This document shows, in pieces, positions 3,448-46,889 of a stretch of DNA of 64,000 bases. Position 1 is the first letter of the stretch, and each line of letters starts with the position of its first letter. Source of the stretch: Arthrobacter wenxiniae (GTDB lineage: Bacteria > Actinomycetota > Actinomycetes > Actinomycetales > Micrococcaceae); the NCBI RefSeq assembly GCF_013376105.1, contig NZ_JAAMFM010000026.1, forward strand, positions 1 to 64,000. The letters run 5' to 3'. A program made the translations under genes and the position numbers. The notes under the pieces are model-generated. The model was not told the origin of the DNA. It saw only the letters and a program-made list of their open reading frames with translations, and ran no database searches.

Positions 3448-3792
3448 TCATTTGTTGGCCGAGGGCAACGTGGGCAGCTTCCAGATCTGGGCGAATTCGT
3501 CGGCAACCTGAGGCCAGACTCGTCGAAGCCCATCTTCAACTGAGTCAATTTCATCGGCTAGTGGCCCGAAGACCACGAAATCATGTGGGATCATTCTGCC
3601 GGCCCTGTCTCGGCGCCCCAAAGGATCCGGGAAACGCAGCGCCCCCTTGTCGCCGACGCGGCGCCAGATTTCCGATTCGTCTCCGACACCCGAGAAGACG
3701 TCATCGTAGACCGGAAGCGGATCCGTGAAACCACCAGTACGAAGAAACCGCAAACCCCAGAAACGCCCACGAGTTGCCCACATGAGGCTCAT
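3448..3792 (-). CDS. Small conserved-looking partner of the upstream GTPase
   Basis: 114 aa, Trp- and Arg-rich, with a compact hydrophobic core and no membrane segment. The motif-like stretches FPDPLGRRDRAGR and WPQVADEF suggest a conserved soluble domain; I do not know its function. Its ATG overlaps the stop codon of the upstream GTPase gene as ATGA (3789-3792), so the two are translationally coupled and probably act together. Small partners encoded next to TRAFAC-type GTPases are known from predicted NTP-dependent conflict systems, which makes a defence or stress role plausible but unproven. It is the last gene of the minus-strand run. Confidence 0.8.
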   Translation of the reverse strand: MSLMWATRGRFWGLRFLRTGGFTDPLPVYDDVFSGVGDESEIWRRVGDKGALRFPDPLGRRDRAGRMIPHDFVVFGPLADEIDSVEDGLRRVWPQVADEFAQIWKLPTLPSANK

Positions 3793-4955
3793 CGACGGCT
3801 CCTGAGAAGAATGTGCTCCTTTTCGCCCTCGTCCAAATCCATTCGGAAGCCCGTCAAGATAGCCGTCAGGTAGTCGCGCTTAGCCAGCGCATCGGCGTTC
3901 ACCTGCCTGACTTTGTCCCCGGCCAGTTTGGCCGCAATGTCCACAAGATCGGGACCGACAAATTTTTGCAGAACACCAAGCTTGCCAGGAAGCTTAACCT
4001 TGGCTGCGACAAGACCCGCAGCCAGAGCTCCGGCACCGACCAGCAGCTTGTCCGCAACTTTCCTGGGAATTAGCTTCGCCTGCTCCCACCGAATGTGTCG
4101 CTCGAACGGGAGCATAGCGGCCAGCGGCGGGACCAGATCAAGTCCAACGCGCTTCATCACCTCAATCTTGTTCGCATCGAACTTCGCTGACGAAAGCAGC
4201 ACGAAGTCTTCACCCACCGACAGCGCATCGTTTCCTTCCACGAGCCCAGCGAGCACCTTGCGCAGTTCCTCTATTTCATCGCCGGCCTTATCTATAAGTA
4301 GATCCCTGAACATGAATACGTCCAGATTGGGCAAGAGATCGGACTTCGACAGGGCCATCATCCAGATAAGGGGGAACTCGACGAGAGGCTTGCCATCCAA
4401 CAACAAGTCATCCTTGAGTGTCAGCAGACCATTTCGGAAATTGCTGAACAACGACTTCAGGTACCGTTCCTCTTCTCCGGAGTTGTCGAGCAGCCTTTGA
4501 CTGTCCACCAGCAAGAGAGCGACATCAGAGCCCAGCAAAGTCTTGAACGTGTCTACCCTGCGCTGGGCTTCCTCTGGACCGCTCACATCCTGCTCGAACC
4601 AATCCCCCGGGTAGTCATGCCAGACGAGGCGCAGGGCGTCAAAGGGCCGGGCCTTAACCGCCTTCGCATCGAGACCGTTCTTAAGCTTCATTGTGAAGGA
4701 GTAGGACGTGGCGGCAAAATTGGTGGGCCCGGGCAGACGCGCGGAATCTCGCATGCCAAGGTAGTTTCGATGCAGTCGATTGCCCTGGCCAATATTGTCG
4801 GCCACGACATTGAACAGATTCTTATTCAGATACTGAGGCTCCTGCGTGGCTCCGTAAAACGATGAAACCATGACGGTCTTGCCGCTGCCACTCTCGCCAA
4901 ACACTGCAATGTGCTGATCCAGGGCTCTACTTAGTCGCATAAGAGAAGCGTACAC
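3789..4955 (-). CDS. TRAFAC-type P-loop GTPase-like protein
   Basis: 388 aa. The Walker A motif GESGSGKT is at residues 20-27, close to the N-terminus. A switch-II/Walker B-like DYPG follows in VWHDYPGDWF (about residue 113), then VALLLVDSQ, and a guanine-specificity-like SKSD in ALSKSDLL. This order matches TRAFAC-class GTPase domains used in predicted bacterial conflict systems. A C-terminal Ala/Val/Leu-rich segment (KLLVGAGALAAGLVAAKV) may touch a membrane. The GTG start at 4955 has no clear ribosome binding site; ATG at 4940 is an alternative and still precedes the P-loop. The gene overlaps the 114-aa partner by 4 bases. Substrate and partners are unknown. The GTPase assignment rests on motifs only. 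Confidence 0.75.
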   Translation of the reverse strand: MYASLMRLSRALDQHIAVFGESGSGKTVMVSSFYGATQEPQYLNKNLFNVVADNIGQGNRLHRNYLGMRDSARLPGPTNFAATSYSFTMKLKNGLDAKAVKARPFDALRLVWHDYPGDWFEQDVSGPEEAQRRVDTFKTLLGSDVALLLVDSQRLLDNSGEEERYLKSLFSNFRNGLLTLKDDLLLDGKPLVEFPLIWMMALSKSDLLPNLDVFMFRDLLIDKAGDEIEELRKVLAGLVEGNDALSVGEDFVLLSSAKFDANKIEVMKRVGLDLVPPLAAMLPFERHIRWEQAKLIPRKVADKLLVGAGALAAGLVAAKVKLPGKLGVLQKFVGPDLVDIAAKLAGDKVRQVNADALAKRDYLTAILTGFRMDLDEGEKEHILLRSRR

Positions 4956-5200: not shown

Positions 5201-6052
5201 CTAACCGCTACAGGAAATCGTAGGCAATTCTTCCCTGACTACGCTCAACTCAGGCAATTTTCTAGGATTTCCACTGAGATTTAGCAAGGGGCCAAATTCA
5301 TGGATGAGCCGGACTTCTGTTTCGTGGACCTCTCGGTCGAACGCCAACCACGAAACTTCCAGGTTTAGGTTGATCCAACGAATGATTGCGACTTCGACGG
5401 CCGGAGCAAACGTGTAGTTGTGCTTGTTGGCCATTCCCGCCAGAGAACCACGCATTGGACGGTGACCGATGACCGCACCGATACTCCGGAAGAACGTACC
5501 ATGTCCCGTTGCCCATAATTCCTGGCCTAGACGCTTACGGAGGCTAATCTTCGCTTCGCCGATGTAGATGAGTCGGTCGTTTCGACGTTCTGCATGTACA
5601 CGGAATGGCTCCGGGAGAACGGCGACGTCGACAACTCGAATGGCATACACGCCGGGTTGTTCTGGCACTAAATTAACGACGTCCCCGGCCAAGCGATAGT
5701 TCAAGTCGTTTAAAAGCGCCGCTGAATCAATTGACATGTTCCCAGACACTGGATCCGGAATGGTTCCATTGTTGGGCCGCCGAGTTTGAGGAGGCTGTTG
5801 AGTTCTTGGGCTCGTCGCAGGACGCAGACCAGCGTTGACCACGAGAGACATCTGGTTGCCCACTTTGTTGAACAAGGCAGGATACTTTCGGAGGCGCGCG
5901 CTAACCTGTGAGGTCGGAACGGGCTGGCCATCTGCACGAGCATAGAGTCCATGAGCATTGACAGCATCCGCGATTTCTCGAGTCGTCAGCGACCTTCCAG
6001 CGTCAGCGAGGATGCGTTCAATTGCGACATGTAGGGTCAATGTTTCGCTCAT
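5201..6052 (-). CDS. HARE-HTH / GIY-YIG-like nuclease domain protein
   Basis: 283 aa. Residues about 5-75 look like a HARE-type winged helix (SLTTREIADAVNAHGLYAR), a DNA-binding module often joined to restriction or helicase proteins. After a Pro/Thr/Gln-rich linker (about 78-105) comes a GIY-YIG-like domain: PGVYAI, then RLIYIGEA, LRKRLGQEL and a late Glu in EVRLIHEFGPLLNLSGNP, a typical end of this fold. That order suggests a DNA endonuclease targeted by its N-terminal domain. Start ATG 6052 has GGAAGG six bases upstream. It has 245- and 328-base gaps on its two sides, so it may be its own transcription unit in the defence block. Confidence 0.75.
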   Translation of the reverse strand: MSETLTLHVAIERILADAGRSLTTREIADAVNAHGLYARADGQPVPTSQVSARLRKYPALFNKVGNQMSLVVNAGLRPATSPRTQQPPQTRRPNNGTIPDPVSGNMSIDSAALLNDLNYRLAGDVVNLVPEQPGVYAIRVVDVAVLPEPFRVHAERRNDRLIYIGEAKISLRKRLGQELWATGHGTFFRSIGAVIGHRPMRGSLAGMANKHNYTFAPAVEVAIIRWINLNLEVSWLAFDREVHETEVRLIHEFGPLLNLSGNPRKLPELSVVREELPTISCSG

Positions 6053-6380: not shown

Positions 6381-7061
6381 CTATGCCCCGTCGCCGACCG
6401 TTTCGCGAGTCTTCTCGGCGCCGTGCCCTTCCATCCACAAAACGATGTCCAGAACGCGAAGCAGCGACAAGTGGGTTTGGCCTGAGCCAGTTCGGATGGT
6501 GTCCAGTCGTTGGCTGAGCTTTCGGCCTTCGTCGCCCTGAAAAGCATGCCACCAACGGCGCCATTGCCGGCCACTGTCGCGCATGCCGACCTGATTCGCG
6601 ATGACGGAATCGTAGATGGGAACGAGATGCGGCCGCTTGCGTGCGAGGATCTTGCTGGTCGTGGTCGGGCCGATGCCCCAGACGTCCCTGCGCTGGCGTA
6701 GCAACTGCCAGATGCAATCGGTTGGAGACCCGTCATCAAGGAACTTCTTGAACTCTTCCTCGTTAAGGTCTTCAAGCCGCACGTCATTGGGCACCTGGAC
6801 CAGAAGGCGTTCGATCTCTCCGTCGAGCTCCTCGATGATTCCTAGGGCTGCTTGACCCGGCACATGGACCGAGAGCGTCGAGACGGCTATCAAGTCCGCT
6901 GCCGTGATCCGGTTCGGTTCCACGACGTCCCCTCCGCCGGCGAAAGTCTCGAACCGGGATCCCGTGTACGTCGGCCGCCCGTTGGCACTGGCCTCGAAAT
7001 ACTTCTTGATGTGACTGACGGCAATCTCGTTGGTGACGTTTTCCATTGCGTGAACCGGCAC
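6381..7061 (-). CDS. DUF6308-like protein with helix-hairpin-helix segment
   Basis: 226 aa. The stretch GIGPTTTSKILARKRPHLVPIYDS has the look of a helix-hairpin-helix DNA-backbone contact as in DNA glycosylases, followed by a Trp-rich helix. The overall pattern matches what I know as DUF6308, common in actinobacteria and without an assigned function. The likely start is GTG 7061, preceded by GGGGGAA; ATG 7046 is the alternative. It lies 92 bases behind the helicase gene on the same strand and may belong to that operon. A role in recognising or processing damaged or foreign DNA would fit, but that is inference. Confidence 0.7.
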   Translation of the reverse strand: MPVHAMENVTNEIAVSHIKKYFEASANGRPTYTGSRFETFAGGGDVVEPNRITAADLIAVSTLSVHVPGQAALGIIEELDGEIERLLVQVPNDVRLEDLNEEEFKKFLDDGSPTDCIWQLLRQRRDVWGIGPTTTSKILARKRPHLVPIYDSVIANQVGMRDSGRQWRRWWHAFQGDEGRKLSQRLDTIRTGSGQTHLSLLRVLDIVLWMEGHGAEKTRETVGDGA

Positions 7062-7153: not shown

Positions 7154-10100
7154 CTATGGGCTCAGATCCAGCGGCTTCATTGCCGTGTTCCGCAGGGTTT
7201 CCAGCAAGTCGTCCTGGCGCGCCTGCCCCAAGGCCAGCCGGTATTCCGCCAGCCCGGACAGCATCCGCTGCGTCCGCGGCACGTCACGGCTAAGCGGGTG
7301 GTCCAGCAGCCTGCGCTCGATCCTGTGTTCACCGGGATGTATCCAGTAGGGGGCGAACTCTCGAACCGCCTGCGGCCTTGAAGCAGCCGCTGCCTCCGCG
7401 CGCTTGAAAAGTGCCTCCCAGGGATTTCGGACACCGGCTGACAGCACCTCTTGCCAGTGCGCTGCGGCTACGTTTTTGCGCACCGCGTGCCCCATATACC
7501 GGTGCACGCGTCCCTCGCGCTGTTCGAAGTCCACCGGGTTCGTCGGAACGTTCCAGTGGATCACGGAGTGGCTCCACCAGTGGAAGTCAATCCCTTCCTG
7601 TCCTACCGAGGTCGATGTCAGCACGAAAGGCCAGAATGGGCTGTTGAAGGCCGTTCGGACATCCGACATGCGCACTCCTCCCCCGTCTTCGCTGCGCCCA
7701 CCGCCGTAGCGCACTGCAAACCGGGTGCCCATCGCCAAGCCTCTGTCAGCTTCGCCTGGGTCTTTGGCCCACAACGTGGCCGAGGTAAGGGAAAGCGAAC
7801 GGCGCATGGTGTCTGCGATGTCCCACAATTGACCGGAGGTGATCCGCCCGCGTGGTTGCTGGCTGCGCAGCTGGAACACATACTCGTCCAAGACGGCCTG
7901 AAGGTTGCCGTCCGCACAGTAGCGAAGAATAGCCTGCCAATAGTCCAGCTCCGGATGCAGATGACTAATGAGCGCTGTCGCATCTTGGCGATTGAAAAGC
8001 GTCCTGAGGCCTTCAGTTGCAAGGAGCGCGGCCTGCCAGTGTTCTACAGGTTCAAACGATGCCGGCAAGACTCGCCCCAGCGCCCGGTACACGCAATTCG
8101 CGGGCGAATTCAAGGCAAGCTCGCCGACACCTTCGCGCCAGGCACCCCCTCCCTCAACCGCGGTCTCGAGCATCCGTGTCACGTGGGACATGAAGTTCGT
8201 TTCGTCGAGTTCGTCTGAGGAAACGGGCGCACCGGCCAACCCGCGTTCGGCGACCAAAGCAATGCCCTTGCGGGCGGCCACAGGGTCACTCTTCCAGGCA
8301 CGGGGCAAGGGGTTTCCCATCCCGAAGTAGGCTGCCCAAATGCCTCGTTCGTCGATGGAACCGCCAGATTGCCAATGCGCTTTCCCCACCAACTCGGCAG
8401 CTTGGCGCATGCCTTCTGGGCCTACAGGGACGCCTTCGTTGACATCGGCCGCCAGCCGCAATGGGTCCACTGAACCGGCCAGCCCGGCGTGGGGTACGAA
8501 GAGCGCCATGGCAGACATGGCCGTCGGGTCTCCTTCACGCATGCGCCAGGCCAAACGCGGGGTGAACCGCGCCCGTGCTTCGGCAGAGTTTTCGACGTCT
8601 CCGTTGGTGAGAGTCATAATGAGTCGCTCAGCCTCGTAGGACAACAGCGTGCTCACCGCATTCGGTGTCGCGTTCCATGCAGAAAAAAGTACCTGTTTCG
8701 TGGCCGCTGTTCCGACCCCGGCAAACGGCCCGGCGGGTTGCGTATAGGGGCACGACGGCGGCATCCACAGTAGTTGCCACCAGCCGTCGCCCAGTACGTG
8801 GCTCTCTACGGCACGATATTTCGCGTTGTCGCCCTCCAGTCGTTCGAAGCGACGGTAGCCATCGCGGCCAATCGTCGTGAGAGTAGGGAGGTGCGTACGG
8901 ATGTCGCCGTTCTCGGGCCTGCTGTCGATCGCCCGGCCCAGCTGGTAGTCCCCTAGGAAGTTCGCGAAGTAGGGCACTGACTTCCAGTATTCGATCGGGT
9001 TTCCGGCCCCGGCTGCCTTCGAAAGCCGCGTCAGGGCCGTAAGGCTGCGCAGGTCGGCCGACCGGACGTCATTGGAAGCCATCTTGTGCACGCGCAACAT
9101 GTCGTCCTCGCCCAGCTGTGGCCGTTCGGTGCGGCACATGTACTGCTTTAAATGCCGTTCAACAGAGGCCGCATTGTCACCAGGTTCGATGCCGGCAAGC
9201 TGCTGCCTGCGGCGGTTCAAGAGCTTCTGGAGCTTGCCCATCCATCCGGGCTCGCCCTGCGAGAGGAATCCCATCAGTTCGGTGAACTCGCTCGCGTGGT
9301 CCTCGCCGCCGTCGTCCTTACCGGACGTGTGGGCCTTGTACGGCGTTGCCGAGAGCAACAACAGCTTGGCGCCTTCGTAATTGAGGAACTGCCGGGCCAA
9401 CTCTGCTGCCCCACCTGCCTCAGACTCACCCTTCGGACCGTGCAACAGGTCTTGGAAGCGCTGGAATTCGTCGAGAATGATCAGATCGGGTTCCAGACAT
9501 TCGAGTCCTGCTTCGGCCAAAACAGTGCGGAATTCTCGAATCAAATCAGGCATGTCCGTCCGCAATTTCTCCATCGGCTCGGTTGATCGGAGAGCCTTCT
9601 TGAAGCGCCGCATCAGGTTCCGTTCCGTGGCGTTTTTTTGGAAGTACTCGCGCACGTGCAGCGTGAAGCCTTCCGGGTGACGCTGGCGGAACTTGTTGAC
9701 TTCGTACAAGAATCCGTTGGTACCGGCATTGCCCCGCAGCAACTCCACAATCTTTGCTTCTACCTCGAAGGGGAAGCGCTTGGGTTCCTTCCTGTCCTCC
9801 CGTTGCCCAAGCAGCGCCTCGAGCATGAGGAAGAGAACGGCCCGCTCTTCTGAGTTTCCGAGGCGTTGTCCGTCACTGAAGGACGTGCCGGGGGTGAGGG
9901 AAATAAAGTTGACCCGCTTGCCCGTGTTTTCCCCTGGTGCGGCGTTCAGACGGCGCAGTTCCAGAGGGAGCAGCGTCAATCGACCGGATTCAATGACGTC
10001 GGCCTGCCGGGTGACGTTGATGCGGTCGATGTTCTGTTTGGCCAGGTCCGCATTGGAGCACATGTAGACGACGTCGATCCGGTCCACACCGTCGACGGTC

Positions 10101-10291
10101 TCAAGGTGTTCGATCGCCCGTGCGACGACGCCGGCCGCCACTACCGACTTGCCGAGCCCAGTTTCGTCGGCCACCAGGAAACGGTCGGTGGTCTGGGCCG
10201 CGGTGTAGAAGCGCTTGAATACGTGGTTCACAGTGCGTTTCTGAAAGGGCTTGAGACCCGCCAATGTCCCTTTGGCACTGAACGCGGTCAT
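7154..10291 (-). CDS. DEAD/SNF2-type helicase of a four-gene defence-like operon
   Basis: 1045 aa from ATG 10291. An in-frame extension upstream is only open by chance, because 10291 overlaps the previous stop as ATGA. Superfamily 2 motifs: KPFQKRTV, Walker A DETGLGKS (about 42-49), Walker B variant DEFQ (274-277), motif III SATP (314-317). Near the C-terminus STSVGQEGIDFHWW and FEQREGRVHRYMGH are motifs V and VI, so both RecA lobes are present. A long insertion between the lobes is unassigned. DEFQ rather than DEAH or DEAD is typical of some defence helicases. Directly upstream lie PLD, DUF6361 and GIY-YIG genes, so it probably moves on DNA to license a nuclease. The DUF6361-PLD-helicase trio may correspond to the Azaca defence family; I recall this from memory only. 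Confidence 0.85.
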   Translation of the reverse strand: MTAFSAKGTLAGLKPFQKRTVNHVFKRFYTAAQTTDRFLVADETGLGKSVVAAGVVARAIEHLETVDGVDRIDVVYMCSNADLAKQNIDRINVTRQADVIESGRLTLLPLELRRLNAAPGENTGKRVNFISLTPGTSFSDGQRLGNSEERAVLFLMLEALLGQREDRKEPKRFPFEVEAKIVELLRGNAGTNGFLYEVNKFRQRHPEGFTLHVREYFQKNATERNLMRRFKKALRSTEPMEKLRTDMPDLIREFRTVLAEAGLECLEPDLIILDEFQRFQDLLHGPKGESEAGGAAELARQFLNYEGAKLLLLSATPYKAHTSGKDDGGEDHASEFTELMGFLSQGEPGWMGKLQKLLNRRRQQLAGIEPGDNAASVERHLKQYMCRTERPQLGEDDMLRVHKMASNDVRSADLRSLTALTRLSKAAGAGNPIEYWKSVPYFANFLGDYQLGRAIDSRPENGDIRTHLPTLTTIGRDGYRRFERLEGDNAKYRAVESHVLGDGWWQLLWMPPSCPYTQPAGPFAGVGTAATKQVLFSAWNATPNAVSTLLSYEAERLIMTLTNGDVENSAEARARFTPRLAWRMREGDPTAMSAMALFVPHAGLAGSVDPLRLAADVNEGVPVGPEGMRQAAELVGKAHWQSGGSIDERGIWAAYFGMGNPLPRAWKSDPVAARKGIALVAERGLAGAPVSSDELDETNFMSHVTRMLETAVEGGGAWREGVGELALNSPANCVYRALGRVLPASFEPVEHWQAALLATEGLRTLFNRQDATALISHLHPELDYWQAILRYCADGNLQAVLDEYVFQLRSQQPRGRITSGQLWDIADTMRRSLSLTSATLWAKDPGEADRGLAMGTRFAVRYGGGRSEDGGGVRMSDVRTAFNSPFWPFVLTSTSVGQEGIDFHWWSHSVIHWNVPTNPVDFEQREGRVHRYMGHAVRKNVAAAHWQEVLSAGVRNPWEALFKRAEAAAASRPQAVREFAPYWIHPGEHRIERRLLDHPLSRDVPRTQRMLSGLAEYRLALGQARQDDLLETLRNTAMKPLDLSP

Positions 10292-12162
10292 TTTCCCTCC
10301 CCCACAGCGGCAACAGCTGCGTCCCACAGCAATCGCACTTCCTCGATCTCCGAATCGTCCGAGATCTGGTACAGCCTGTCCATGACGGGTTTCAGACCAG
10401 CGAACAGCTGTGGCGCGTCCGCGCTGGTCGCCGCTGCAGCGATGGCCTCGAACAACCCCGCAAAGGAGCCGCTGGCGCCCGCTGTCCCGAACCAACCAGT
10501 GAAGAGTCCCCCGCCCACCGGTGTCTGGTCCTCAGGGGTTAGGAACAAAAGCAGGAACTCACGCAGTTTCTCCACAGTGTCCAGTTGGCTGGCGATTATG
10601 TGCTCTATCCGCCCGTCCACGTCCGTTCGCAACATGCCCTGAGCGACGGTGGAGCGCACCATCCCGGTCGCAGTGTCCCTGAGTTCTACCAGCACATACG
10701 GTGTGACCATGGCCAGTGGCAGTCCTTCGAATGTATGCCGGTGAGTTCCAATGGACTGCGGTACGTCCGTGAGTTGTCCGGGCAGCGTCAGTAGCCCGAT
10801 GCGGGCTGTCATGTTCGACGGCGGTGAATAGTCGTGCACCATGGCAACCGTGTACTTGTCGCCTTCGCGGGCTGGCACGGCATCCAGTGTGTAGGTCTTA
10901 GTGGCCGCGGCGATGAGTGCGTTCTGGAGACGCCATTCAGCCTCCTCGGTGGCTGCCGTCTCAGTTCCCCCGGCGCCTGTGAATTCGACGAAGGGCAAGT
11001 CTTTGAGCGACTCGACGATCTTTTCCGTACCAATCCGGTTCTTAGGACCGGTGAGTTCCACGGAGAATTCCACATTTTGGCCGAACGCGGCACGGGTGGC
11101 ATTGGCCGAGCCGATCAACGCGTGGGTCGTGTGGTCGTAGTCGGTGAACAGGGCCTTGGCATGCAGGCCCCGCAGGTCCCCGAGCTCCTGTACGTTCCCG
11201 GTATCCGGTTCTTCGTCGAGAGCAAGACCGGTTTCGTCGATGGCGTTGAAGACCGCCTTCGGGTTTCCCAGCGTATCCGGGGAGAGCCGGTCCAACTCCT
11301 GGCCGCGCCCGTAAACTTGCAAGGTCCTTGCTCCTGAGCCTGCGAGAATGTCGAGGGTTTCGTCGTCGACAAACGGTGCCACCAACAGCCGGTTTCCGCC
11401 GAAGTTTCGACGGTCGCCTGCCAGTCCATTAAGTCCGACGGCGGAGTTCGGGTTCTGGAGCAGCCCCACCAGGGAGTTGGGCGAGTGGGCTTCCCCGGTG
11501 CCCAGTGCCCGGAACGCCAGGGTGCGGATGTCCTGCGGCAGTTCCCAGCGCACCGCCGCCACCCGGTGTGCGAGTCCACGGATCGCTTTCTCTCTCGCAG
11601 CGGTCAGAGGAATAGTGGAGAGCTCCGGCAGTGCTTGCACGAAGCGCGACAATGGCGCGTTGTCGACTGCGAATTCATACGTATCTGCCGCTGCCTCGGC
11701 GTTGTCTGTTTCCGGGATCCGCCCGTCGAGGCGGACAAGCAGGTCCCAGCTGGCGTCGGGGGTGAGGTTGCGGCTGCTGCACAGGACCCGGTACAGGTAG
11801 TCAGCCTCGGATTCATATTCCAGCAGCCAGATTTTTGGATGAAATAGTGCGCCTGACGCGGGTACGCGAACTTGATGAATGATTGGCTCGAGGACCGCCA
11901 GCAGGTCGTTGGCCTGACGTGGCATGCGGATCAGGCCGGCTTGGCAGAAGATGTCGACGCGATCGGACACCTTGCGGACGGCGTTGAGGAGCGCGACGGC
12001 GTTGCTTGGGTCTTCGCCGGAGCCTCGGACAAAGCTGAGCGGTACCGCGAGGGCACTGATCATGTCCAGAGTGAACGTAGTGCCGACGGCATGGCTGAGC
12101 TTATAGCCGGCAGGTGGACGGAGTTGTTCGGTGAGTGCCTCGCGGGCGCCTGGATCAAGCAC
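10288..12162 (-). CDS. Phospholipase D-fold nuclease-like protein
   Basis: 624 aa. Two HxK motifs are visible. The first is FHPKIWLLEY (H108, K110), followed by SSRNLT. The second is HAKALFTD (H334, K336, D341), followed by IGSANAT. This paired arrangement is the catalytic pattern of the PLD superfamily, whose bacterial defence members act as nucleases. The C-terminal 250 residues are unassigned. It starts at GTG 12162, overlapping the DUF6361 stop by 8 bases, and its stop overlaps the helicase start by 4 bases, so the three genes are translationally coupled. The likely job is DNA cleavage guided by the helicase. Confidence 0.85.
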   Translation of the reverse strand: MLDPGAREALTEQLRPPAGYKLSHAVGTTFTLDMISALAVPLSFVRGSGEDPSNAVALLNAVRKVSDRVDIFCQAGLIRMPRQANDLLAVLEPIIHQVRVPASGALFHPKIWLLEYESEADYLYRVLCSSRNLTPDASWDLLVRLDGRIPETDNAEAAADTYEFAVDNAPLSRFVQALPELSTIPLTAAREKAIRGLAHRVAAVRWELPQDIRTLAFRALGTGEAHSPNSLVGLLQNPNSAVGLNGLAGDRRNFGGNRLLVAPFVDDETLDILAGSGARTLQVYGRGQELDRLSPDTLGNPKAVFNAIDETGLALDEEPDTGNVQELGDLRGLHAKALFTDYDHTTHALIGSANATRAAFGQNVEFSVELTGPKNRIGTEKIVESLKDLPFVEFTGAGGTETAATEEAEWRLQNALIAAATKTYTLDAVPAREGDKYTVAMVHDYSPPSNMTARIGLLTLPGQLTDVPQSIGTHRHTFEGLPLAMVTPYVLVELRDTATGMVRSTVAQGMLRTDVDGRIEHIIASQLDTVEKLREFLLLFLTPEDQTPVGGGLFTGWFGTAGASGSFAGLFEAIAAAATSADAPQLFAGLKPVMDRLYQISDDSEIEEVRLLWDAAVAAVGEGK

Positions 12163-13336
12163 GGGCCAGGCCCTCCTTCAGGTCAACCATCATGTTGCGG
12201 ACCTGTATCCAACGGAAGGTCTGCGGACTAATCCGCACCGGAGGCACCCATGCGCGCAGGCGTCGCTCGTTAGTGAATCGCGAGTTGGCACCCTTGGCGC
12301 GTTTTTCGCGTTCCTGGACCATAGTGTGCAGCACGTTATTTGCGGCCAGGTCGGTATCGGAGAGCAATTCCTTAACCGCCCGGGTGAGGAAGGTGACGCT
12401 GTGCGGCTGGATCCGCGGGTTTACGCGTTTTGCACGGACTATGAATTCGTCCACGTCCCAATCATGGAGCAGACGCCTGTAGCGATCGTCCGCGCGCCAC
12501 TGCTCAAGCAGATTGGTGGTATCTCCTTCCGGCTCGGCGCCGAATCGGCGGGTGGCTTCGGCGGTGACGAGGTATGAGTAGACTGCGTCCAGCCCGTGCT
12601 GGAAAGCAGAATATGCTTCCGCGTGTTGGAGCCATTCTGACGCCCCTCCCGTCGCCGATATTGCGGCCGGGTCGGCCCACGGAGTGGGGCTGGTCTTTAG
12701 AATCAGCTGCGGTTTCGCCACAAGGTGCGCGAGCAGCGTCCCAGATTCGGTGGCCAGAATTCGGTCCCGTATCCACTCGGCCTCGGCGCGGCCGAGATCG
12801 ATTCCGTGTTCTTCAGTGCCCGGGAACCCTGCGGGAGCCGGCGGCAGCCCGGGATTCCACACGGGATCCTGCGGCATCCCGTCCCTTCGACCGGCGGCCT
12901 CATCGATCATTGCGTCGCCGATGGAATTGCGTTCGACGTCGCTGCGGACAATCCCCCAAGCGCGCAGCGCGGACCAATACGCGGCCGAAGGCAGTTGGGC
13001 GACTCGGTCCCCGGCAGAACTTCCAATAAACCGCAAAACGTCCAGTTCCTGAAAGCGACGGATGAGCCTACGCTCTGCCTGTTCAGCCCAGGCTCCAAGC
13101 TGCTCACCAGTCTTGGCTTGGCCGGCAGATTGGAAGCACCATGGGATCAAGAGCAGGTAACGCGCAGCCACATGCAGGACGGACGTACCAGGAAAAAGCG
13201 AGTTGCTGATCGTTTCCCGGAACTGTCCCAGGGCCAGATCATCGATGCTTTCAGGCATTTCGAACAGGCGGATCAATTCGCGCATCCGATTCGTCTCGGC
13301 GGAACTGGCATCGAGCCAGGAAATCAAGGAAGTCAC
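12155..13336 (-). CDS. DUF6361 family protein
   Basis: 393 aa from GTG 13336, which has GGGAGG five bases upstream; the longer open frame to 13402 lacks a binding site. The N-terminus has the pattern of DUF6361: ISWLD, then RMRELIRLF, then SNSLFPGTSVLHVAARYLLLIPW. The function of this domain is not known to me. The protein looks soluble and helical, with several Trp-containing motifs. Its stop overlaps the PLD gene by 8 bases, and the upstream GIY-YIG gene ends 16 bases before it. Constant linkage with PLD and helicase genes would suggest an adaptor or target-recognition subunit. Confidence 0.8.
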   Translation of the reverse strand: MTSLISWLDASSAETNRMRELIRLFEMPESIDDLALGQFRETISNSLFPGTSVLHVAARYLLLIPWCFQSAGQAKTGEQLGAWAEQAERRLIRRFQELDVLRFIGSSAGDRVAQLPSAAYWSALRAWGIVRSDVERNSIGDAMIDEAAGRRDGMPQDPVWNPGLPPAPAGFPGTEEHGIDLGRAEAEWIRDRILATESGTLLAHLVAKPQLILKTSPTPWADPAAISATGGASEWLQHAEAYSAFQHGLDAVYSYLVTAEATRRFGAEPEGDTTNLLEQWRADDRYRRLLHDWDVDEFIVRAKRVNPRIQPHSVTFLTRAVKELLSDTDLAANNVLHTMVQEREKRAKGANSRFTNERRLRAWVPPVRISPQTFRWIQVRNMMVDLKEGLARA

Positions 13337-13352
13337 GGTTCCCTCCCCACCG

Positions 13353-14264
13353 TCACGAGTACTCAGGCAGTGGCGGAGCCAGCTGCTCTTGCCACTGGGC
13401 AAAGGTCAGCCCTGAAGAAGGGACCTTCCACGCAGTTCGTCCGTTCGCATTGCGGCCCGACACTACGGCAGCGGCGGCACTCGGGCTGTTAAACGCGTAG
13501 CTGTCCACGAAGACACCCTCGCCATCGACAACGCTGAGAGTACCCGCCTTACGCAACCGCTCATAAAGCAGCCCGTAGTTGTGGCCAGATCCCGTCCACG
13601 TCGAACGGGCACTGGAACCGGCGACGACCACGAATTCGCCGTTGATGTCTTGTCCCCGAGCAATGCCCTGTTCGGCGGGCACCTTCATCTCGAAGACTGG
13701 CGAGAGGTGATCTCCCGTGCTATTCGTCGTCGCGGTTGTCGGAATTGGCCTTCCGCGGAACGCGTCCAGCCCAAGGACCGGCAGGACAATCTGAGCTTGG
13801 CTAATGAAATACTCCATGTCAGAAACGTCTGCTTCCGGAAGATTCACGGTCGGCGGACGGTTTCCGTTCTCAAGGGCATAGCGATCAGTGGCAGCAGCCA
13901 GCGCAATGAACCGACTTTCAAGGTATCTCACGTGCGCCTTGGTTAGGTTCGCATCCTTGCTCGTCAAAAAGACCACACGATTCCAAAATTCCTTGCCGGT
14001 GCTGGCACTGTTGTGTTGCCGCAGCCTGGCCGCCACGTCGTCCGCTTCACCAACATAGAGCAGCCCGCGATCCGCATCCTCCGGATTATCACCGAGCAAA
14101 AAATACACACCCGGCGAATTCGCCTCTCCCCGCCCCAGCAAGTCATTCAATTCGGACCTGGAACCAGAGACGACCCTGCCCGTCCAATTCATGATTTCCG
14201 CCGTCAAGATGCCAGTCGGCGACCCATCTACCAAAAACAGACGAACCTGCTTACCAGTAGCCAA
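13353..14264 (-). CDS. GIY-YIG nuclease with C-terminal DUF4357
   Basis: 303 aa. The GIY-YIG domain occupies about residues 50-150: GVYFLLG, LLYVGEADDVAARLRQH and, later, ARYLE-type YLESRFIALA, which carries the family Glu. A C-terminal DUF4357 follows, with FVVVAGS, SPSAAAAVVSGRNANGRTAWK and a final W-rich helix. DUF4357 commonly follows GIY-YIG or restriction domains. The start is TTG 14264 with AGGGGA five bases upstream. It is the first gene of the operon that continues with DUF6361, PLD and helicase, so the operon encodes two separate nuclease folds. A TATATA box just upstream (about 14275-14280) could be part of its promoter. Confidence 0.8.
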   Translation of the reverse strand: MATGKQVRLFLVDGSPTGILTAEIMNWTGRVVSGSRSELNDLLGRGEANSPGVYFLLGDNPEDADRGLLYVGEADDVAARLRQHNSASTGKEFWNRVVFLTSKDANLTKAHVRYLESRFIALAAATDRYALENGNRPPTVNLPEADVSDMEYFISQAQIVLPVLGLDAFRGRPIPTTATTNSTGDHLSPVFEMKVPAEQGIARGQDINGEFVVVAGSSARSTWTGSGHNYGLLYERLRKAGTLSVVDGEGVFVDSYAFNSPSAAAAVVSGRNANGRTAWKVPSSGLTFAQWQEQLAPPLPEYS

Positions 14265-15178: not shown

Positions 15179-18100
15179 TCATCCAGCCAGATATACAACG
15201 TCACCTCGGAGTTGAAGTCGCCCGTTGTCAACTCCATACTGGAGGCCTTCGTTCAGCCGGGCAGTTATGCCAGCAGTTCGCCGTTTCCCACCAAAGAGCC
15301 GAATGGTTTCCACCTGCAGCTCGGTGACCGAGATGCCGCCTGATCGACGGACTATATCGATCATGGCATTGCGGAGCTCCACTACACTGACGTGTTCAAG
15401 CTTTCGCTCGACGTCTAGTCCATTCACTCGAAATTCCGTCCATTGCTCCGGATCAATACTGCCCTCCCAAATGAATCCATCCCGATCGCACTGATGGGCT
15501 GATGAATCCAACGCATCCAAGACGGAATTGGCCCGGTCCGCGTTCACTTTGTTTAGCTCAAAAGCGGCGCAGGCTAGTTTTGCCAACCGCACTTGGTGGA
15601 CAGGGCCCTCCGCTTCAACAATAGCCCTGAGAGCTTCACGGACGGCCAGCACGGAACGCCGGGATGGCAACGCATCCAGAATGTCCCTGCCGCCAAAGCG
15701 GCGAACTGTCCACGGCTTGTAACCCGGATGTTCCTGCTCGACGAAATCTGTCGTAGACCGGGGCCCGCTATCGACCGAAGCCAGCAGTGACGACGGCGCG
15801 TCAGATTGTCCAACTTCGGAAGCCAGCGGCAGCGGGCTGTACAAAGCAGACATGGTGTTGGAAACAGCAGGTTCATCCTTCAAACCTTCCGTACCAGCGG
15901 ACCGAACCGGCTCGGCATCTGGCCCAGGCACGCCCGCAGTCGTTTCAGCGAATACCCTCTCTAGCTTGTCCAACACGGCTTCGCGGTCACTGATCCAAGC
16001 TGGCAGCCACACCCGCTGGACCGACGGCCAGCGCATCATTCTAGTCAGAACCTCCCCTGGCAGGCCGTCGCGATCCCCGGCAGTACGCCGTGCCGCCCAA
16101 GTCGGACCGTCCAAGAGGATGGCCATGGAAGGTCTGTCTGGGGCGTCCGCCAATGCCACGCTGATGTCGACCTTGAAGTCCGAGAGCCCGACGTCGGTGG
16201 CGACGGCATATCCGCGGTCCCGGAGTCCGTCTGCGATTTCCTCGCGGTGGAGGTCCACTAAGTGGGCGCGACGACCGTCATACGGCAGCGCGCCGGTCCC
16301 GCGCTCGGCGAGATCCAGGTAGGACCGCAGGTGCTTGATTCCGATTGAGCTCGTCTCCTCTGATCGCAGTTCGGAGGGGCTGAAGCTGGAGAAGACGATG
16401 ACCTGCCGTCGGGCACGAGTCACAGCCACATTGAGCCGCCGTTCTCCGCCAGCCCGGTTTAGCGGACCGAAGTTCAGTGGGAGGTAGCCCTTGTCGTTCT
16501 TACTGAAGCCCGTCGAGAAGAGAATGACATCACGCTCGTCACCCTGAACGTTCTCCAGGTTCTTCACAAAAAGGCCCTCGGGGTCATCATCCAAGGCCTT
16601 GACGATTCGGGGGTCATCAGTGTCGCGGAGGAGGCTTTCAATCAACGCGCGTTGTTGCAGGTTGAAAGTCACCACTCCCACCGACGGGGACCCACTGCTG
16701 GCGTCAAACCGACGCCGAATCTCAGCCACGACGGCTGCCGCCTCGATGGGGTTGGTCCGCAAAACCTTCGAGGTTCCGGATCGGTAGAACTGACCGTTCA
16801 AGCGCACGAAGTTCACACCGTAACCGCGCAGCCCGGGGTTCGGGGCTCCGTGGGATGGCCCGGGGAAGGAAGAGAGCTTGCTCTCGTAGTATTGCTGGTT
16901 GCTGAATGCGATGAGTGATTCATCCTGGCTCCGATAATGCCAAGACAGCCATTGGCGCTGCACGCGTGCCTCAACGCATTCGGAAAGGATGGACTCCATA
17001 TCCTCGACGGGAACGACGTCGTTGCTCACGTCATCCAGAGAATCGCCGGACGATTCGGCGAACGAAGTTGGGGGCATCTGTTTACTGTCGCCTACGACCA
17101 CCACGGACGCGCCGCGGCCCATCGCGCCGACAGCGTCTGCCACGCGGATCTGTGAAGCCTCATCGAACACCACGATGTCGAAGAGACCCGCTCGTGCCGG
17201 GAAGAACCGCGCAACGGAGTCCGGGCTCACGAGCGTGCACGGCATGATCTGCGTTATGAGGTCGGCGTAATTTTCCATCAGCTTGCGGACGGTGAGGCCG
17301 CCGCGTTGGCGGGTAAGTTGACGCTGCAGCTCCCCGATCCGTCCAGTAGTAGATGACGACGATACCCGCCGCGAACTCACGACGTCGGCAGCAAGGTTCC
17401 CCTTCAAGAGCTCACGAACCAACGCGGTCCGCGTGGTGAACCGCTCGATGGTCCGCTCGTGGACCTGAGCGTCAAAATCCTGCAGTCCGGTCGCCAGTCG
17501 GCGTTCTTCCAAGGAGCTCTCGGCCAGACCGCGTTCGAAAGCCGTAGCGGCATCATCCGCATCGAGCTCACCATCCAAAATTGCGGTGCGAACGTCGTGC
17601 AAGCCCACCGATCGGAGAAGTTCCACATGAGAGAGCAGTTCCTGCCAACGTTGCAAAACCAGGGACCCCGAGGGGTCGATGCCTCTAGCGGCCCGCGTGG
17701 CGGACCAGACCTCCATGAATCCCTTGTTTCCGGTCCACCCAGCAATTTCCGAGTATTCCATGGCTGCGGTACCCACAAGTGATTCCCAGGCCGATGCGAG
17801 CTCGTAAACCCAGGCGATGATGTTCACGTGGACATGCTGACCATCGTTGAGGAAATCACGCAAGGCCGTTTGGAAGCGGGCCCTTCCGTCGCCGTCGATT
17901 GGCTGTACAGCCTGCGCTGCCCACCGTAGCCATCCGAGCCGACGCTCCAGCGCCTGTTGTCCATTCTCGGTCAACGGATTCCAACCCTGTGGGACAGCCA
18001 TGCCAGGAACGGCTTGAGCTTGGTCCTGAAGTCCGCGGATTTCTTGCTGCGCGGCAACCAGACTCAGCATCAACGGCACCAGCTCCTTTGGCCGGACCCT

Positions 18101-21100
18101 CGCTCCCTGATGCACCACAGCGTTCAGCTCCGCCACTACTGTCAGCAACCGCTTCTTGCGACCAAAGAAGCCGCTGGCCGCAGCCTGCTGTGCCCGACCC
18201 AGGATCTCTTCAAGTGGGAGATCCATGGCCGCGGGACCCACCTTATCCAGGCCGGGGTGATTCACCGCTGCAAATGCCGACGCCAGCTGCTCTAGATGCT
18301 GAGCTCCTGCGGACCACGGGCTGGACCTTACGACGTCGAGAGTCTGCACCGGGACGCTGCGATCCTCAAGAAGAGCAGCAAGCGTGCGAACTTCGGCCGG
18401 GGACGTGGCGCTGCCGATAACGGCTGGCAGACCTTCAACGGACCTGATGGCGTCCAAAGCCTCGTCGATTCGACGTCCAACGCCGGTGAGTTGAGTCATT
18501 TCCTCGGTACCCGCGGAAAAAGTCACGAACCGCCAGGGATGGTTCGCGGCGGGGCGAGCCCGGTCGGTGTATTCGGGCAGCTCACGCAACAGGGTTCGAA
18601 TGGACTCAAGGATCGTACCTTTTACTGAGGAGACAAAGTCCGAGCCAAGAGACAGCCCGGGAATATCGGAGTCAAAGGTCAAGGACTTAGTCCGGGAGCT
18701 GTAAAGGGAAAGCTGAGCGTCGTTCTCCTCATGCAGACGGCCGGCGTAACGAATGAGAGTGCGCCGAGCAGAGGCGAGGTCGGTTGCGGCGGTGTCCAAT
18801 TGCTGGCTGTCGGAAGCCAAACGCAGCTCAAGCGCTTGTTTGATTTGCGCCCGAACCGCTGCCGGTTTGCTCCCCTTGTCGTGCAAATCCAGAGAGAAAG
18901 GACCCATGCCTACCTCTTCCAGCCGTTTCTGCACAACGTCCAGGGCGGCGCGCTTCTCGGCGACAAACAAGACACGCTTACCTTCTACGATCGCGCGTGT
19001 AAGCAAGTTGGTGATCGTCTGGGACTTACCCGTGCCGGGAGGGCCTTCCAACACGAAGGTCTCTCCAGCAACTGCCGATGCGACAGCTTGCAGCTGCGTC
19101 GAGTCGGCCGGGATGGGGCACAGGGCAGACAAGGCATCGAGGTCCGTCCCCTCTGCGCGCTTCACGGGGTCGTTGAAAAGTTCCGTCGGGCTGGTGATGA
19201 GGTGATCGACGAGGCGGTTCTGGGCAAACTGCTCCCAGCTCTCGTCCAGATCTTTCCAAAGACGGAACTTCGCAAACTGCAACATGGACAGGTCCACAGT
19301 GTTCTCCACGCGGAAAGCCAGCCCCTTGGCTGATACTGCTTCCCTAACTGCGTTGAAAGCAGCGTCCAGGTCTATGCCGGAGCCATCTTCGGCCGGCTCC
19401 GCCAAGCCGGGAATTCGAAGTCCATGGCTTTGAGCGAGCTTTTCCAACAGGCAGTAGTTGGGTGTTGACTGGCCAGCCTCGTCCAGCGTGACCCGGTAAA
19501 GTCCGTTCTTTCCCGCCGACGTCAGGGTAACGGGGATGAGCACCAGCGGCGAGCGGAGTGCTCGGCCGTCGAGTTCCCACAGCAAACTACCGAGGGCCAA
19601 ATACAGGTTATTGGCGCCCGTTTCTTGTGTCTGGGTTTTCGCTTTGTAGGCCAGGCTTCGCATTTTGGCGTTGTAGGCCTCAACGGATACCTCGGCAAAA
19701 ACGGACTTCTTCGTGCTGAGCATGCTAATCAGTTCGTCCAGTGGCAGGTCTCTGCCGAAGCGGATACCGCGCTCTTGGTGGATGGCACTGATCTGGTTGG
19801 ATGGGATAAGGCTGATGGGAGTGCCGTTGTTGACGAGATCTTCGAACGCGCCAATCCACGTACTGGGGACCGCAAGGGGGAAGCGGGCTGTGTCTGTGAA
19901 GTTGATCAACCGGTTTCGCAGGCTGAGATCTAGCAGTGCATTCTTCCACTGTGTGACTCGCGGTGGCACATCGGCAGCGCTCCGCTCGTGCGGCGCTCCC
20001 TTACCTCTTTTCTCAGGTAGGACCGGAGCCACTTTGGCCTCCGGGACGTAATTTGTGACGACCAGCTCTCCTGAAACAGCGATAGTACGTGCCGGTAAAG
20101 GGTAAATGCCGTCAAGTCGGGCACGTCGAATGTCGGTGACTGCTTGAATTTTGTCGTGACCCGTTTCGATGTACGTCGCTTCCGGGCTGCCTCTGAGGAT
20201 GAGCGGGCTGATGGGTTGGCTACCTGTCAGCAGCGTTGTTTCGACCAAGCCGATGAAACCTCGCTGAACAAGACTGACGAGCTCTGCGACATCGTCATAA
20301 GCGGCGGTTGGAAGCGTGCCTTCCTCCCGCCAGTAACCGAGGAAGGCGTGTCCGTCGACGATCCAGACGAGCGGAGCGATCCCGCAGAACTCAAGCGCAG
20401 CGGCCATGACGACCGTGGTGTCGAGGCAGGTACCAAGACGATCTTCCAGTACCTGAGCCGGCGTCCGCACCTGCTGGCCCTCCACCCCCCAGCTCGTAGG
20501 CGGCATGCTATATCGGATGTCGCGCTGGCTGGCGGCTTCGGACAGCGCGAAGACAATCTCGTCCACACGTTCCGGGCCGTCCATATAGCCATCCAGGCTG
20601 CTGCTGCCAGTCCTTTTCTTCAAAAGGTCCGCGGCCTCGGAGACAAGCGCGGAAATAGCGGGATGATGGGGTTGCACAAAGGCTGCTAGGAATTCGTAGG
20701 AGACAAGACCTCTGCCAGCGATCCACAGCTGTGCTGGTAGCAGGTCTAGACGCGCTTCTGCCTTGCCAATTTCCATCGACTCCGCACCTGCCGCGCCGGA
20801 CTCGACAGATACAACCGCTCGACCGGACCGCTTGTCTGAAAGTTCATACATCGTAGTGGCAGACACGTGGACATTGATGTCGTCCAGGACTATGGACTGC
20901 CCGGCAGCGAGGTCCACGTACTGCTGGAATTCCTCTGAAATCCTGGCTGCACTGGAAAACACCTCCACGCGGACCACGGCACCGCGGATTTCCGCCCCCG
21001 GATTCGTGATTCGTATTTGCCTGACGAACTTGAAACCGTTGTGCACCATTGCATAACTGAGAGACTCCGCTGTGGTGACCTCCACGCTAACGAGGTGCTT

Positions 21101-21622
21101 CATAGCGGCGGGCTCAGCTGGCTGGGGCGAGACGGTTTGTACTTCTTTGCTGCCGCTGCCAGTCCCTGTGGATTCCGTGGTGGCCTTGGCTGCTCCCCGC
21201 ATCGTGTACTCGTTGAGCAATGTGTTAAGTACCTGTACGGCCTCGGACAGCTCCAGATTTTTGGCCAGCCTCCGGGTCGTGTCCAGCGCGCGGAACGTAT
21301 CTGCTCCATCGAAGGTCTCATTGTGGGCCCAAAGGTTGCGGGTCTGGCGCAGCTCTGAGGTGTAGCTGCGTGTTTCGTGGTTCAAGTTGAAGGGGTAGCC
21401 GAGGGATCCCAAGGCCTCTGTCATGACACGGAGCTGAGCGCTTAGGTCCGCGGACGAGTATTGTATCGGCGCCCTGCCGGCGCTGGCGTCCTTGTGCTCT
21501 AAGAGCTTGGGCCAAGAAATGCCTGGCGCAACACTCTCTAGGACCGACCCAATGTAGGAGTCTAGGCCGCTTGCCAAAGTGTCCAGAGCACGACCGACGT
21601 ACTCGCGGTTGGAAATACCCAT
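15179..21622 (-). CDS. Giant HEPN / DUF4011 / SF1 helicase / restriction-fold protein (Hhe-like)
   Basis: 2147 aa from ATG 21622 (GGGGGA upstream; GTG 21658 is a weaker alternative). Domains in order: a Swt1-like HEPN domain with the RNase-type R-x4-H motif RNLWAH (about 95-100); a transglutaminase-like region with GTCLD (Cys about 399) and VDGHAF (His about 425); DUF4011 starting near 555 (WKNALLDLSLRNRLINF); an SF1 (Upf1-like) helicase with GPPGTGKS (about 860-867), Walker B FDEAS and motif VI RLNVAVTRARR; a Vsr/MTES_1575-like endonuclease fold (KVDISVAL, AILLDGPTW); and a C-terminal DUF3320-like part. Single proteins with DUF4011, helicase and Vsr-type nuclease are known as Hhe anti-phage systems, and this fits. 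The usual Glu before the second Asp (ECDG-type) is Leu here, so the nuclease may use a variant site. Confidence 0.88.
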   Translation of the reverse strand: MGISNREYVGRALDTLASGLDSYIGSVLESVAPGISWPKLLEHKDASAGRAPIQYSSADLSAQLRVMTEALGSLGYPFNLNHETRSYTSELRQTRNLWAHNETFDGADTFRALDTTRRLAKNLELSEAVQVLNTLLNEYTMRGAAKATTESTGTGSGSKEVQTVSPQPAEPAAMKHLVSVEVTTAESLSYAMVHNGFKFVRQIRITNPGAEIRGAVVRVEVFSSAARISEEFQQYVDLAAGQSIVLDDINVHVSATTMYELSDKRSGRAVVSVESGAAGAESMEIGKAEARLDLLPAQLWIAGRGLVSYEFLAAFVQPHHPAISALVSEAADLLKKRTGSSSLDGYMDGPERVDEIVFALSEAASQRDIRYSMPPTSWGVEGQQVRTPAQVLEDRLGTCLDTTVVMAAALEFCGIAPLVWIVDGHAFLGYWREEGTLPTAAYDDVAELVSLVQRGFIGLVETTLLTGSQPISPLILRGSPEATYIETGHDKIQAVTDIRRARLDGIYPLPARTIAVSGELVVTNYVPEAKVAPVLPEKRGKGAPHERSAADVPPRVTQWKNALLDLSLRNRLINFTDTARFPLAVPSTWIGAFEDLVNNGTPISLIPSNQISAIHQERGIRFGRDLPLDELISMLSTKKSVFAEVSVEAYNAKMRSLAYKAKTQTQETGANNLYLALGSLLWELDGRALRSPLVLIPVTLTSAGKNGLYRVTLDEAGQSTPNYCLLEKLAQSHGLRIPGLAEPAEDGSGIDLDAAFNAVREAVSAKGLAFRVENTVDLSMLQFAKFRLWKDLDESWEQFAQNRLVDHLITSPTELFNDPVKRAEGTDLDALSALCPIPADSTQLQAVASAVAGETFVLEGPPGTGKSQTITNLLTRAIVEGKRVLFVAEKRAALDVVQKRLEEVGMGPFSLDLHDKGSKPAAVRAQIKQALELRLASDSQQLDTAATDLASARRTLIRYAGRLHEENDAQLSLYSSRTKSLTFDSDIPGLSLGSDFVSSVKGTILESIRTLLRELPEYTDRARPAANHPWRFVTFSAGTEEMTQLTGVGRRIDEALDAIRSVEGLPAVIGSATSPAEVRTLAALLEDRSVPVQTLDVVRSSPWSAGAQHLEQLASAFAAVNHPGLDKVGPAAMDLPLEEILGRAQQAAASGFFGRKKRLLTVVAELNAVVHQGARVRPKELVPLMLSLVAAQQEIRGLQDQAQAVPGMAVPQGWNPLTENGQQALERRLGWLRWAAQAVQPIDGDGRARFQTALRDFLNDGQHVHVNIIAWVYELASAWESLVGTAAMEYSEIAGWTGNKGFMEVWSATRAARGIDPSGSLVLQRWQELLSHVELLRSVGLHDVRTAILDGELDADDAATAFERGLAESSLEERRLATGLQDFDAQVHERTIERFTTRTALVRELLKGNLAADVVSSRRVSSSSTTGRIGELQRQLTRQRGGLTVRKLMENYADLITQIMPCTLVSPDSVARFFPARAGLFDIVVFDEASQIRVADAVGAMGRGASVVVVGDSKQMPPTSFAESSGDSLDDVSNDVVPVEDMESILSECVEARVQRQWLSWHYRSQDESLIAFSNQQYYESKLSSFPGPSHGAPNPGLRGYGVNFVRLNGQFYRSGTSKVLRTNPIEAAAVVAEIRRRFDASSGSPSVGVVTFNLQQRALIESLLRDTDDPRIVKALDDDPEGLFVKNLENVQGDERDVILFSTGFSKNDKGYLPLNFGPLNRAGGERRLNVAVTRARRQVIVFSSFSPSELRSEETSSIGIKHLRSYLDLAERGTGALPYDGRRAHLVDLHREEIADGLRDRGYAVATDVGLSDFKVDISVALADAPDRPSMAILLDGPTWAARRTAGDRDGLPGEVLTRMMRWPSVQRVWLPAWISDREAVLDKLERVFAETTAGVPGPDAEPVRSAGTEGLKDEPAVSNTMSALYSPLPLASEVGQSDAPSSLLASVDSGPRSTTDFVEQEHPGYKPWTVRRFGGRDILDALPSRRSVLAVREALRAIVEAEGPVHQVRLAKLACAAFELNKVNADRANSVLDALDSSAHQCDRDGFIWEGSIDPEQWTEFRVNGLDVERKLEHVSVVELRNAMIDIVRRSGGISVTELQVETIRLFGGKRRTAGITARLNEGLQYGVDNGRLQLRGDVVYLAG

Positions 21623-22139
21623 TCTGTTCCCCCATCTGCGGCGGATGCCACGCCCCACATCAACTCAGCTCAGACTAGTACTGTGCCGACTAACACCCAA
21701 ATGGGGTAATTTTAAGTTGGATCGTAGGAGCGGCCTATAAACGGCTTTCTGACGGTCTTTTTCATCGTGGATTGCGTTGGTACCTAAATTTTCCGAAAAA
21801 CATTTGCACGCATGCGGGCAGCCCCAAGACATGGGATGTCACAGAAGTCTTATGGCTGATGCGCTCAAATACCAAACAAGCAGGTCGCAGACAGGCAGAG
21901 CCAAGTGGTGGCCAGAAACCCAAGGACAGCTGGAACCTAGGGAGCCCGGCTAAATTCGAGACCGCCAAAACGACGATCAAAATATCTACATGTTAGTCTG
22001 CGGCGTCGCCACCCGGCCAACCATCAATCCCGTATCCTTCTATGACGAGCCGCCACGCTAGGACAGCCTCTTGAACTTGTACCAAGCAACCGGCAATCAT
22101 CATCACGGAACGCGAACAATCTAAGGGGACTAAGAAATT
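21623..22139. other. Intergenic region between divergent genes
   Basis: About 500 bases separate the divergent Hhe-like gene and an orphan gene. Two overlapping frames near 21762-21996 have no binding site or recognisable product. It should hold both promoters; I cannot place them with confidence. Confidence 0.35.
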
Positions 22140-46341: not shown

Positions 46342-46889
46342 AAAATTGCAGGCAATGTGGAACCGCCTTTGAACCGAGGCGCATGTCCCAACAGTATTGT
46401 TCCCCCTCATGTTCACGCCGTCATCGGGACGCGGCGTGGCAGGACCGGAGACACACGCAGACGTCACACCGGTTGAAGACTCAGCTGGCCGCCGCCGTCA
46501 CCGAAAACCGGGTTCAGTTAGAAGCCGCCACCGCTAAATGCCAGCGGCAGCTGGCCGAGGCTAGGCACACAGCGCGAAAGCAACTGGAGGTCCAGACCAA
46601 CTGGCACGAGCAAGAACTCGACAAGCTTCGTACCCGTTTGCGGGACCTTGCCAGCATCAACGTCGACATTGCTTGCGAGATGCCGGAATTGAAGGCCCAG
46701 ATCACCGAGCTACAGCTGGAGAACGCCCGGCTTTTCCACGGCCAGCATGCCGACTACCAGGAACTGATGCAGATCGCCGGCAGACTGTTTGAGCTATCCT
46801 CGCGGCTTGGTCTCCCGCTCGACAAAGCCACGAAGGAGATCTTCCAACGCCGCGGCTGGCGAACCAACACCCTCGTGCCCGAACAATGA
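46332..46889 (+). CDS. Zinc-motif and coiled-coil protein preceding the relaxase
   Basis: 185 aa. Residues 6-27 hold a CRQC...CSPSC-type pattern (four cysteines, two CxxC/CxxxC pairs) typical of a small zinc ribbon. Residues about 45-150 form an extended coiled coil rich in Leu, Ala, Gln and Glu (TARKQLEVQTNWHEQELDKLRTRL). The stop overlaps the relaxase start as ATGA (46886-46889), so they are co-translated. Such small proteins next to a MobF relaxase often act as transfer accessory or origin-binding proteins, but I cannot name a family. No usual ribosome binding site is seen; the start lies in a perfect inverted repeat. Confidence 0.75.
   Translation: MNTKNCRQCGTAFEPRRMSQQYCSPSCSRRHRDAAWQDRRHTQTSHRLKTQLAAAVTENRVQLEAATAKCQRQLAEARHTARKQLEVQTNWHEQELDKLRTRLRDLASINVDIACEMPELKAQITELQLENARLFHGQHADYQELMQIAGRLFELSSRLGLPLDKATKEIFQRRGWRTNTLVPEQ

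What the first reader, a model, noticed from the sequence alone, without database searches (positions are those of the whole stretch)
7154..14264. Tightly coupled GIY-YIG/DUF4357 - DUF6361 - PLD - helicase operon: candidate under-described defence system
Four minus-strand genes overlap or nearly touch (16-base gap, then 8- and 4-base overlaps). They combine two different nuclease folds, a DEAD/SNF2-type helicase and an unassigned DUF6361 protein, next to other defence genes. The DUF6361-PLD-helicase core may correspond to a family I tentatively recall as Azaca; the GIY-YIG/DUF4357 member leading the operon would then be an unusual addition.
Basis: partly seen in the sequence, partly recalled or inferred. 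Interest (0 to 1): 0.75.

Follow-up and report, generated by a model that had tools for sequence, protein, structure and literature searches.

The report
Azaca defence operon plus GIY-YIG gene
These four genes are a copy of the already described anti-phage system Azaca (zacA-zacB-zacC), led by a small nuclease gene that elsewhere sits mostly in type I restriction operons; having that gene directly in front of Azaca appears to be a one-off, so the locus is mostly ordinary.

Summary
Three are a textbook Azaca system: PADLOC ZacA (8.6e-100), ZacB (1.1e-139), ZacC (1.9e-300), in the order found in nearly every relative examined. The leading GIY-YIG/DUF4357 gene is also catalogued, as PADLOC candidate PDC-S14. 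In 27 of 53 loci examined it lies in a type I restriction operon (HsdM/HsdS/HsdR). Of 93 zacA loci (a few duplicated) only this window has it directly upstream of zacA; genome surveys show no co-occurrence beyond chance, and the zac-neighbouring GIY-YIG genes are not one lineage. Best explanation: a complete Azaca operon in a defence island (ProA, class 1 DISARM), with a promiscuous accessory nuclease gene captured in the leading position and probably co-transcribed. ZacB models as a Tdp1/PLD3-like two-lobed phosphodiesterase with both HxK half-sites intact; ZacC keeps the SF2 motifs, so the core probably works as motor plus nuclease. ZacA has a confident all-helical model without a clear match among solved structures. 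Whether the GIY-YIG protein works with Zac is untested.

The parts
13353..14264 (-). GIY-YIG + DUF4357 protein, 303 aa (PADLOC PDC-S14), leading gene
   Evidence: PDLC04923 1.7e-117; DUF4357 2.1e-14; Y54, Y70, G72, R80, H84, E116, N133 invariant or nearly so in 48 homologues and present here
12155..13336 (-). zacA, DUF6361 protein, 393 aa
   Evidence: PDLC03828 8.6e-100; DUF6361 4.6e-26; AlphaFold2 model pLDDT 88.6
10288..12162 (-). zacB, PLD-family protein, 624 aa
   Evidence: PDLC03829 1.1e-139; half-sites H108/K110/N132 and H334/K336/N354/E365 invariant in 45 sequences; residues 1-408 model as a two-lobed PLD fold
7154..10291 (-). zacC, SF2/SNF2-like helicase, 1045 aa
   Evidence: PDLC03830 1.9e-300; motifs GLGK, DEFQR, SATP and QREGRVHR invariant or nearly so in 34 sequences (positions)

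Best explanation
A complete Azaca (ZacABC) anti-phage operon in a defence island, led by a PDC-S14 GIY-YIG/DUF4357 gene. That gene family is most often found in type I restriction operons and sometimes alone; here it was captured just upstream of zacA and is probably transcribed with it. Likely working of the core: ZacC, an SF2 motor related to DrmD/DpdE, moves on DNA; ZacB, a single-chain two-lobed PLD phosphodiesterase of the Tdp1/PLD3 kind, cuts it; all-helical ZacA acts as adaptor or sensor. The GIY-YIG protein is a catalytically intact nuclease that most likely acts on its own or as a loosely coupled extra DNA cutter, not as an obligate Zac subunit. Shown: gene identities, order, intact motifs, rarity of the GIY-zac link. 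Inferred: DNA as the target, cooperation of motor and nuclease, ZacA's role, co-transcription, and the capture event.
For: PADLOC hits for all four proteins. zacA-zacB-zacC contiguous in nearly all complete loci from many phyla. PDC-S14 directly upstream of zacA in 1 of 93 loci; elsewhere at 2.9 and 4.4 kb or beyond zacC on the other strand. PDC-S14 within type I restriction operons in 27 of 53 loci, next to one Hsd gene in 4 more (annotated examples). Tree: the window gene lies in a clade of 26 (100/99), 18 of them type-I-linked; zac-neighbouring copies do not group. Co-occurrence at chance, Fisher p 0.71 and 0.22. ZacB fold and invariant half-sites; ZacC motifs.
Against: The 16-base gap with a ribosome-binding-like run suggests co-translation with zacA, which would fit a functional subunit. 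In two other genomes PDC-S14 also lies within 5 kb upstream of zacA. Azaca activity was not tested for this copy, and no promoter or transcript data exist.
Confidence: 0.75

Rival explanations
1. A four-gene Azaca variant: the GIY-YIG/DUF4357 protein is a real fourth subunit that adds a second nuclease to the ZacC motor, as the same family may do for HsdR motors in type I restriction operons.
For: Same strand, 16-base gap, plausible ribosome-binding site; active-site residues intact; the family recurs beside SF2 motor genes: HsdR in type I operons, and within 5 kb of zac in L017 and L078.
Against: No other locus of about 93 has it adjacent to zacA; no co-occurrence above chance; the zac-neighbouring copies are not one lineage; in L017 the gene belongs to a type I operon.
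Confidence: 0.16
2. The GIY-YIG gene is a stranded remnant of a lost type I restriction operon, without present function next to zac.
For: Its clade is mostly type-I-linked, and L017 shows HsdM-HsdS-GIY-HsdR, an EcsC-family gene, then zacABC in one stretch, so loss of Hsd genes could leave such an arrangement.
Against: The frame is intact and all family-invariant residues are kept; no Hsd gene was detected in the first 25 kb of the window, and the two small ORFs upstream match nothing.
Confidence: 0.08

Closest known systems
Azaca (ZacA-ZacB-ZacC; listed under Millman et al. 2022 in PMC10952713)
   Same: All three proteins, their order and their tight overlaps.
   Different: A PDC-S14 gene directly upstream of zacA, not seen in any other zac locus examined. 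Identity to the nearest relatives found is only about 36-41%.
PDC-S14 (PADLOC phage defence candidate), often in type I restriction operons
   Same: Full-length match, conserved active-site residues.
   Different: No HsdM, HsdS or HsdR beside it here.
DISARM (DrmC PLD protein and DrmD helicase)
   Same: ZacB's second half-site region resembles DrmC (3e-5) and ZacC's C-terminal helicase motifs resemble DrmD (1e-9).
   Different: No methyltransferase, DrmA or DrmB among these four genes; a separate full DISARM lies at 26529-40319 in the same window.

Membership tests
Azaca | ZacA (DUF6361) protein | tested here: met
   PDLC03828 8.6e-100, residues 24-413 of the ORF on model 2-395 of 396
Azaca | ZacB PLD protein | tested here: met
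   PDLC03829 1.1e-139, full length
Azaca | ZacC helicase | tested here: met
   PDLC03830 1.9e-300, model 3-999 of 1019
Azaca | The three genes contiguous in the order A-B-C | tested here: met
   8- and 4-base overlaps; same order in relatives
Azaca | Protection against phages | not testable with these tools
   Needs phage challenge of a host
PDC-S14 | Full-length match to the PADLOC model | tested here: met
   PDLC04923 1.7e-117, model 21-313 of 320
Type I restriction-modification | HsdM, HsdS and HsdR beside the GIY-YIG gene | tested here: not met
   No Hsd match in the first 25 kb of the window by profiles built from annotated plasmid genes
DISARM | DrmA/DrmB plus methyltransferase within this operon | tested here: not met
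   None among the four genes; the DISARM set is separate at 26529-40319

The most novel reading that the evidence does not exclude
PDC-S14 is an interchangeable accessory nuclease for SF2-motor defence systems: usually coupled to HsdR in type I restriction, here coupled to ZacC, giving a four-gene Azaca variant with two different nuclease chemistries.
Probability: 0.16. Interest if true: 0.45.

Novelty: new member of a known kind. Interest (0 to 1): 0.2.

Why it matters
It settles that the locus is a known system and that the GIY-YIG gene is a recurrent neighbour of type I restriction genes rather than of Azaca; I found no description of that type I link in the papers searched. Two by-products may help with the still unknown Azaca mechanism: ZacB looks like a complete one-chain PLD phosphodiesterase of the Tdp1/PLD3/PLD4 kind with two intact half-sites, and ZacA has a confident all-helical model without a clear match among solved structures.

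Tried and rejected
ZacA fold search: Foldseek best E 0.5 at probability 0.08, best second-look Z 3.5 (rmsd 5.0, 135 aligned): no usable match; this does not show that the fold is new. PDB sequence searches with the ZacA profile, ZacB and ZacC gave nothing meaningful. ZacA in viral contigs: none confirmed; in phage records one weak match of 21.5% identity. Megablast of 24 kb of the window against plasmids: only a 37-base match. Housekeeping-paralogue idea: rejected, since zacABC is conserved as a unit. Type I remnant upstream of the GIY gene: none found. No promoter or terminator signal above the shuffled background. GC content does not clearly separate the GIY gene (58.2%) from zac (61.2-62.1%). 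The Paenarthrobacter lasiusi paper mentions PDC-S14, but its table of systems lists no DISARM or Azaca, so it is probably not this strain. Structure prediction of the GIY protein was not run: both jobs went to ZacA and ZacB.

Full report
Observation. ZacC most likely starts at ATG 10291 rather than at the far upstream TTG 10495, because homology to the ZacC model begins near residue 71 of the longer frame.

Identity. PADLOC names the proteins PDC-S14, ZacA, ZacB and ZacC with E-values of 1.7e-117, 8.6e-100, 1.1e-139 and 1.9e-300. Pfam agrees on DUF4357 and DUF6361 and gives weak GIY-YIG, PLD and helicase hits. ZacABC is the Azaca system; PMC10952713 lists Azaca under Millman et al. 2022 as carrying a PLD-like domain, and PMC10482375 lists it among systems of unknown mechanism enriched in Actinobacteria. 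So the core is known.

How common is the GIY-YIG lead gene? A ZacA alignment found 60 loci in bacterial genomes from Actinomycetota, Chloroflexota, Cyanobacteria, Pseudomonadota, Verrucomicrobiota, Bacteroidota and others. Further loci came from surveys of 396 genomes of the phylum and 396 of the order (stretches fetched). Profile searches showed zacA-zacB-zacC contiguous in nearly every complete locus. Of 93 zacA loci (a few are the same genome held twice), 85 hold at least 1.2 kb upstream of zacA. PDC-S14 was found upstream in three: this window (adjacent), L078 at 2.9 kb and L017 at 4.4 kb. A fourth genome, G617, has it about 4.6 kb beyond the 3' end of zacC on the other strand. In L017 the gene lies between HsdS and HsdR; in L078 it follows a large protein with a MADS mad8 match.

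Co-occurrence. In the order survey, 25 genomes other than the home genome have a clear ZacA (three very weak matches left out) and 32 have PDC-S14; one has both. In the phylum survey the numbers are 7, 14 and 1. Neither exceeds chance (Fisher p 0.71 and 0.22). Among plasmids, 40 records carry ZacA and 108 carry PDC-S14; in the rows listed, only the Methylocystis parvus plasmid (two entries) carries both, tens of kilobases apart.

Where PDC-S14 usually lies. In 27 of 53 loci two or more of HsdM, HsdS and HsdR lie nearby on the same strand, and 4 more have one (the set includes the zac-linked loci, and some contigs are short). Annotated plasmids show the order M-S-GIY-R or R-M-S-GIY, also in one whose HsdS is interrupted by insertion elements. 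The viral-collection contig L233 reads like a type I operon too, judged only from the starts of its reading frames. In a tree of 48 sequences the window's gene falls in a strongly supported clade of 26, 18 of them type-I-linked, and the zac-neighbouring genes do not group. The window gene keeps the residues conserved in the family, including those expected of a GIY-YIG active site (their assignment to catalysis rests on general knowledge of GIY-YIG nucleases).

Mechanism. ZacB residues 1-408 model as a two-lobed PLD fold (pLDDT 84.9). The closest solved structures are a phospholipase D, human PLD4 with ssDNA, PLD3 and Tdp1 (Z about 19-22, rmsd 3.5-4.9, about 290-330 residues aligned). Both HxK half-sites are invariant in 45 sequences. 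ZacC carries the SF2 motifs, invariant or nearly so in 34 sequences, and its C-terminal motifs score against DrmD, DpdE and BrxH families. ZacA has a good model (pLDDT 88.6) without a usable structural match. From this I infer a motor-plus-nuclease core acting on DNA, with ZacA as adaptor or sensor; target and trigger are not shown.

Setting. The window also holds an NCBIfam anti-phage protein ProA, a class 1 DISARM operon and a TrwC-type relaxase, so the locus is part of a defence island on a contig with a conjugation gene.

Verdict. A new member of the known Azaca kind, with a known candidate gene in an unusual position. That position is real but a single case, and may be incidental.

Noticed in passing
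26529-40319 (-): A complete class 1 DISARM operon: DrmD (37152-40319), DrmMI (33052-37155), DrmA (29282-33055), DrmB (27271-29583) and DrmC (26529-27434), by PADLOC matches.
   Followed up: partly
15179-21658 (-): 2159-aa protein matching NCBIfam 'anti-phage protein ProA' above its cut-off (1698 bits against 1500) and PADLOC PDC-S37; related to Hhe.
   Followed up: no
5201-6052 (-) and 6381-7061 (-): Just downstream of zacC: a DUF6308 protein and a second, different GIY-YIG family protein (GIY_YIG_2 with a weak HARE-HTH match), neither in PADLOC. A DUF6308 gene also lies near the type I/PDC-S14 operon of plasmid pDF01.
   Followed up: no
3448-4955 (-): A 388-aa protein with a P-loop and a weak DO-GTPase2 match (3.8e-5, under the cut-off), overlapping a 114-aa ORF without any match.
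   Followed up: no
46886-50434 (+): TrwC-type relaxase-helicase, suggesting that the contig is, or contains, a conjugative element carrying the defence island.
   Followed up: no
L024, L026, L029, L043, L158, L159: Several zac loci in other genomes have a second SNF2-type defence helicase gene within 10 kb (best matches DrmD, HmaA or an 'HKD+Snf2' model), so zac tends to lie beside related motor-based systems.
   Followed up: partly
L075:3499-5112: Aeromicrobium contig with a ZacA remnant (56% identity over part) broken across frames and without zacB or zacC: a decayed Azaca locus.
   Followed up: no
L078:614-7080: In Geomobilimonas luticola, PDC-S14 directly follows an 1830-aa protein with a MADS mad8 match at its C-terminus and weak DndH/SspH matches: another non-type-I partner.
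   Followed up: partly
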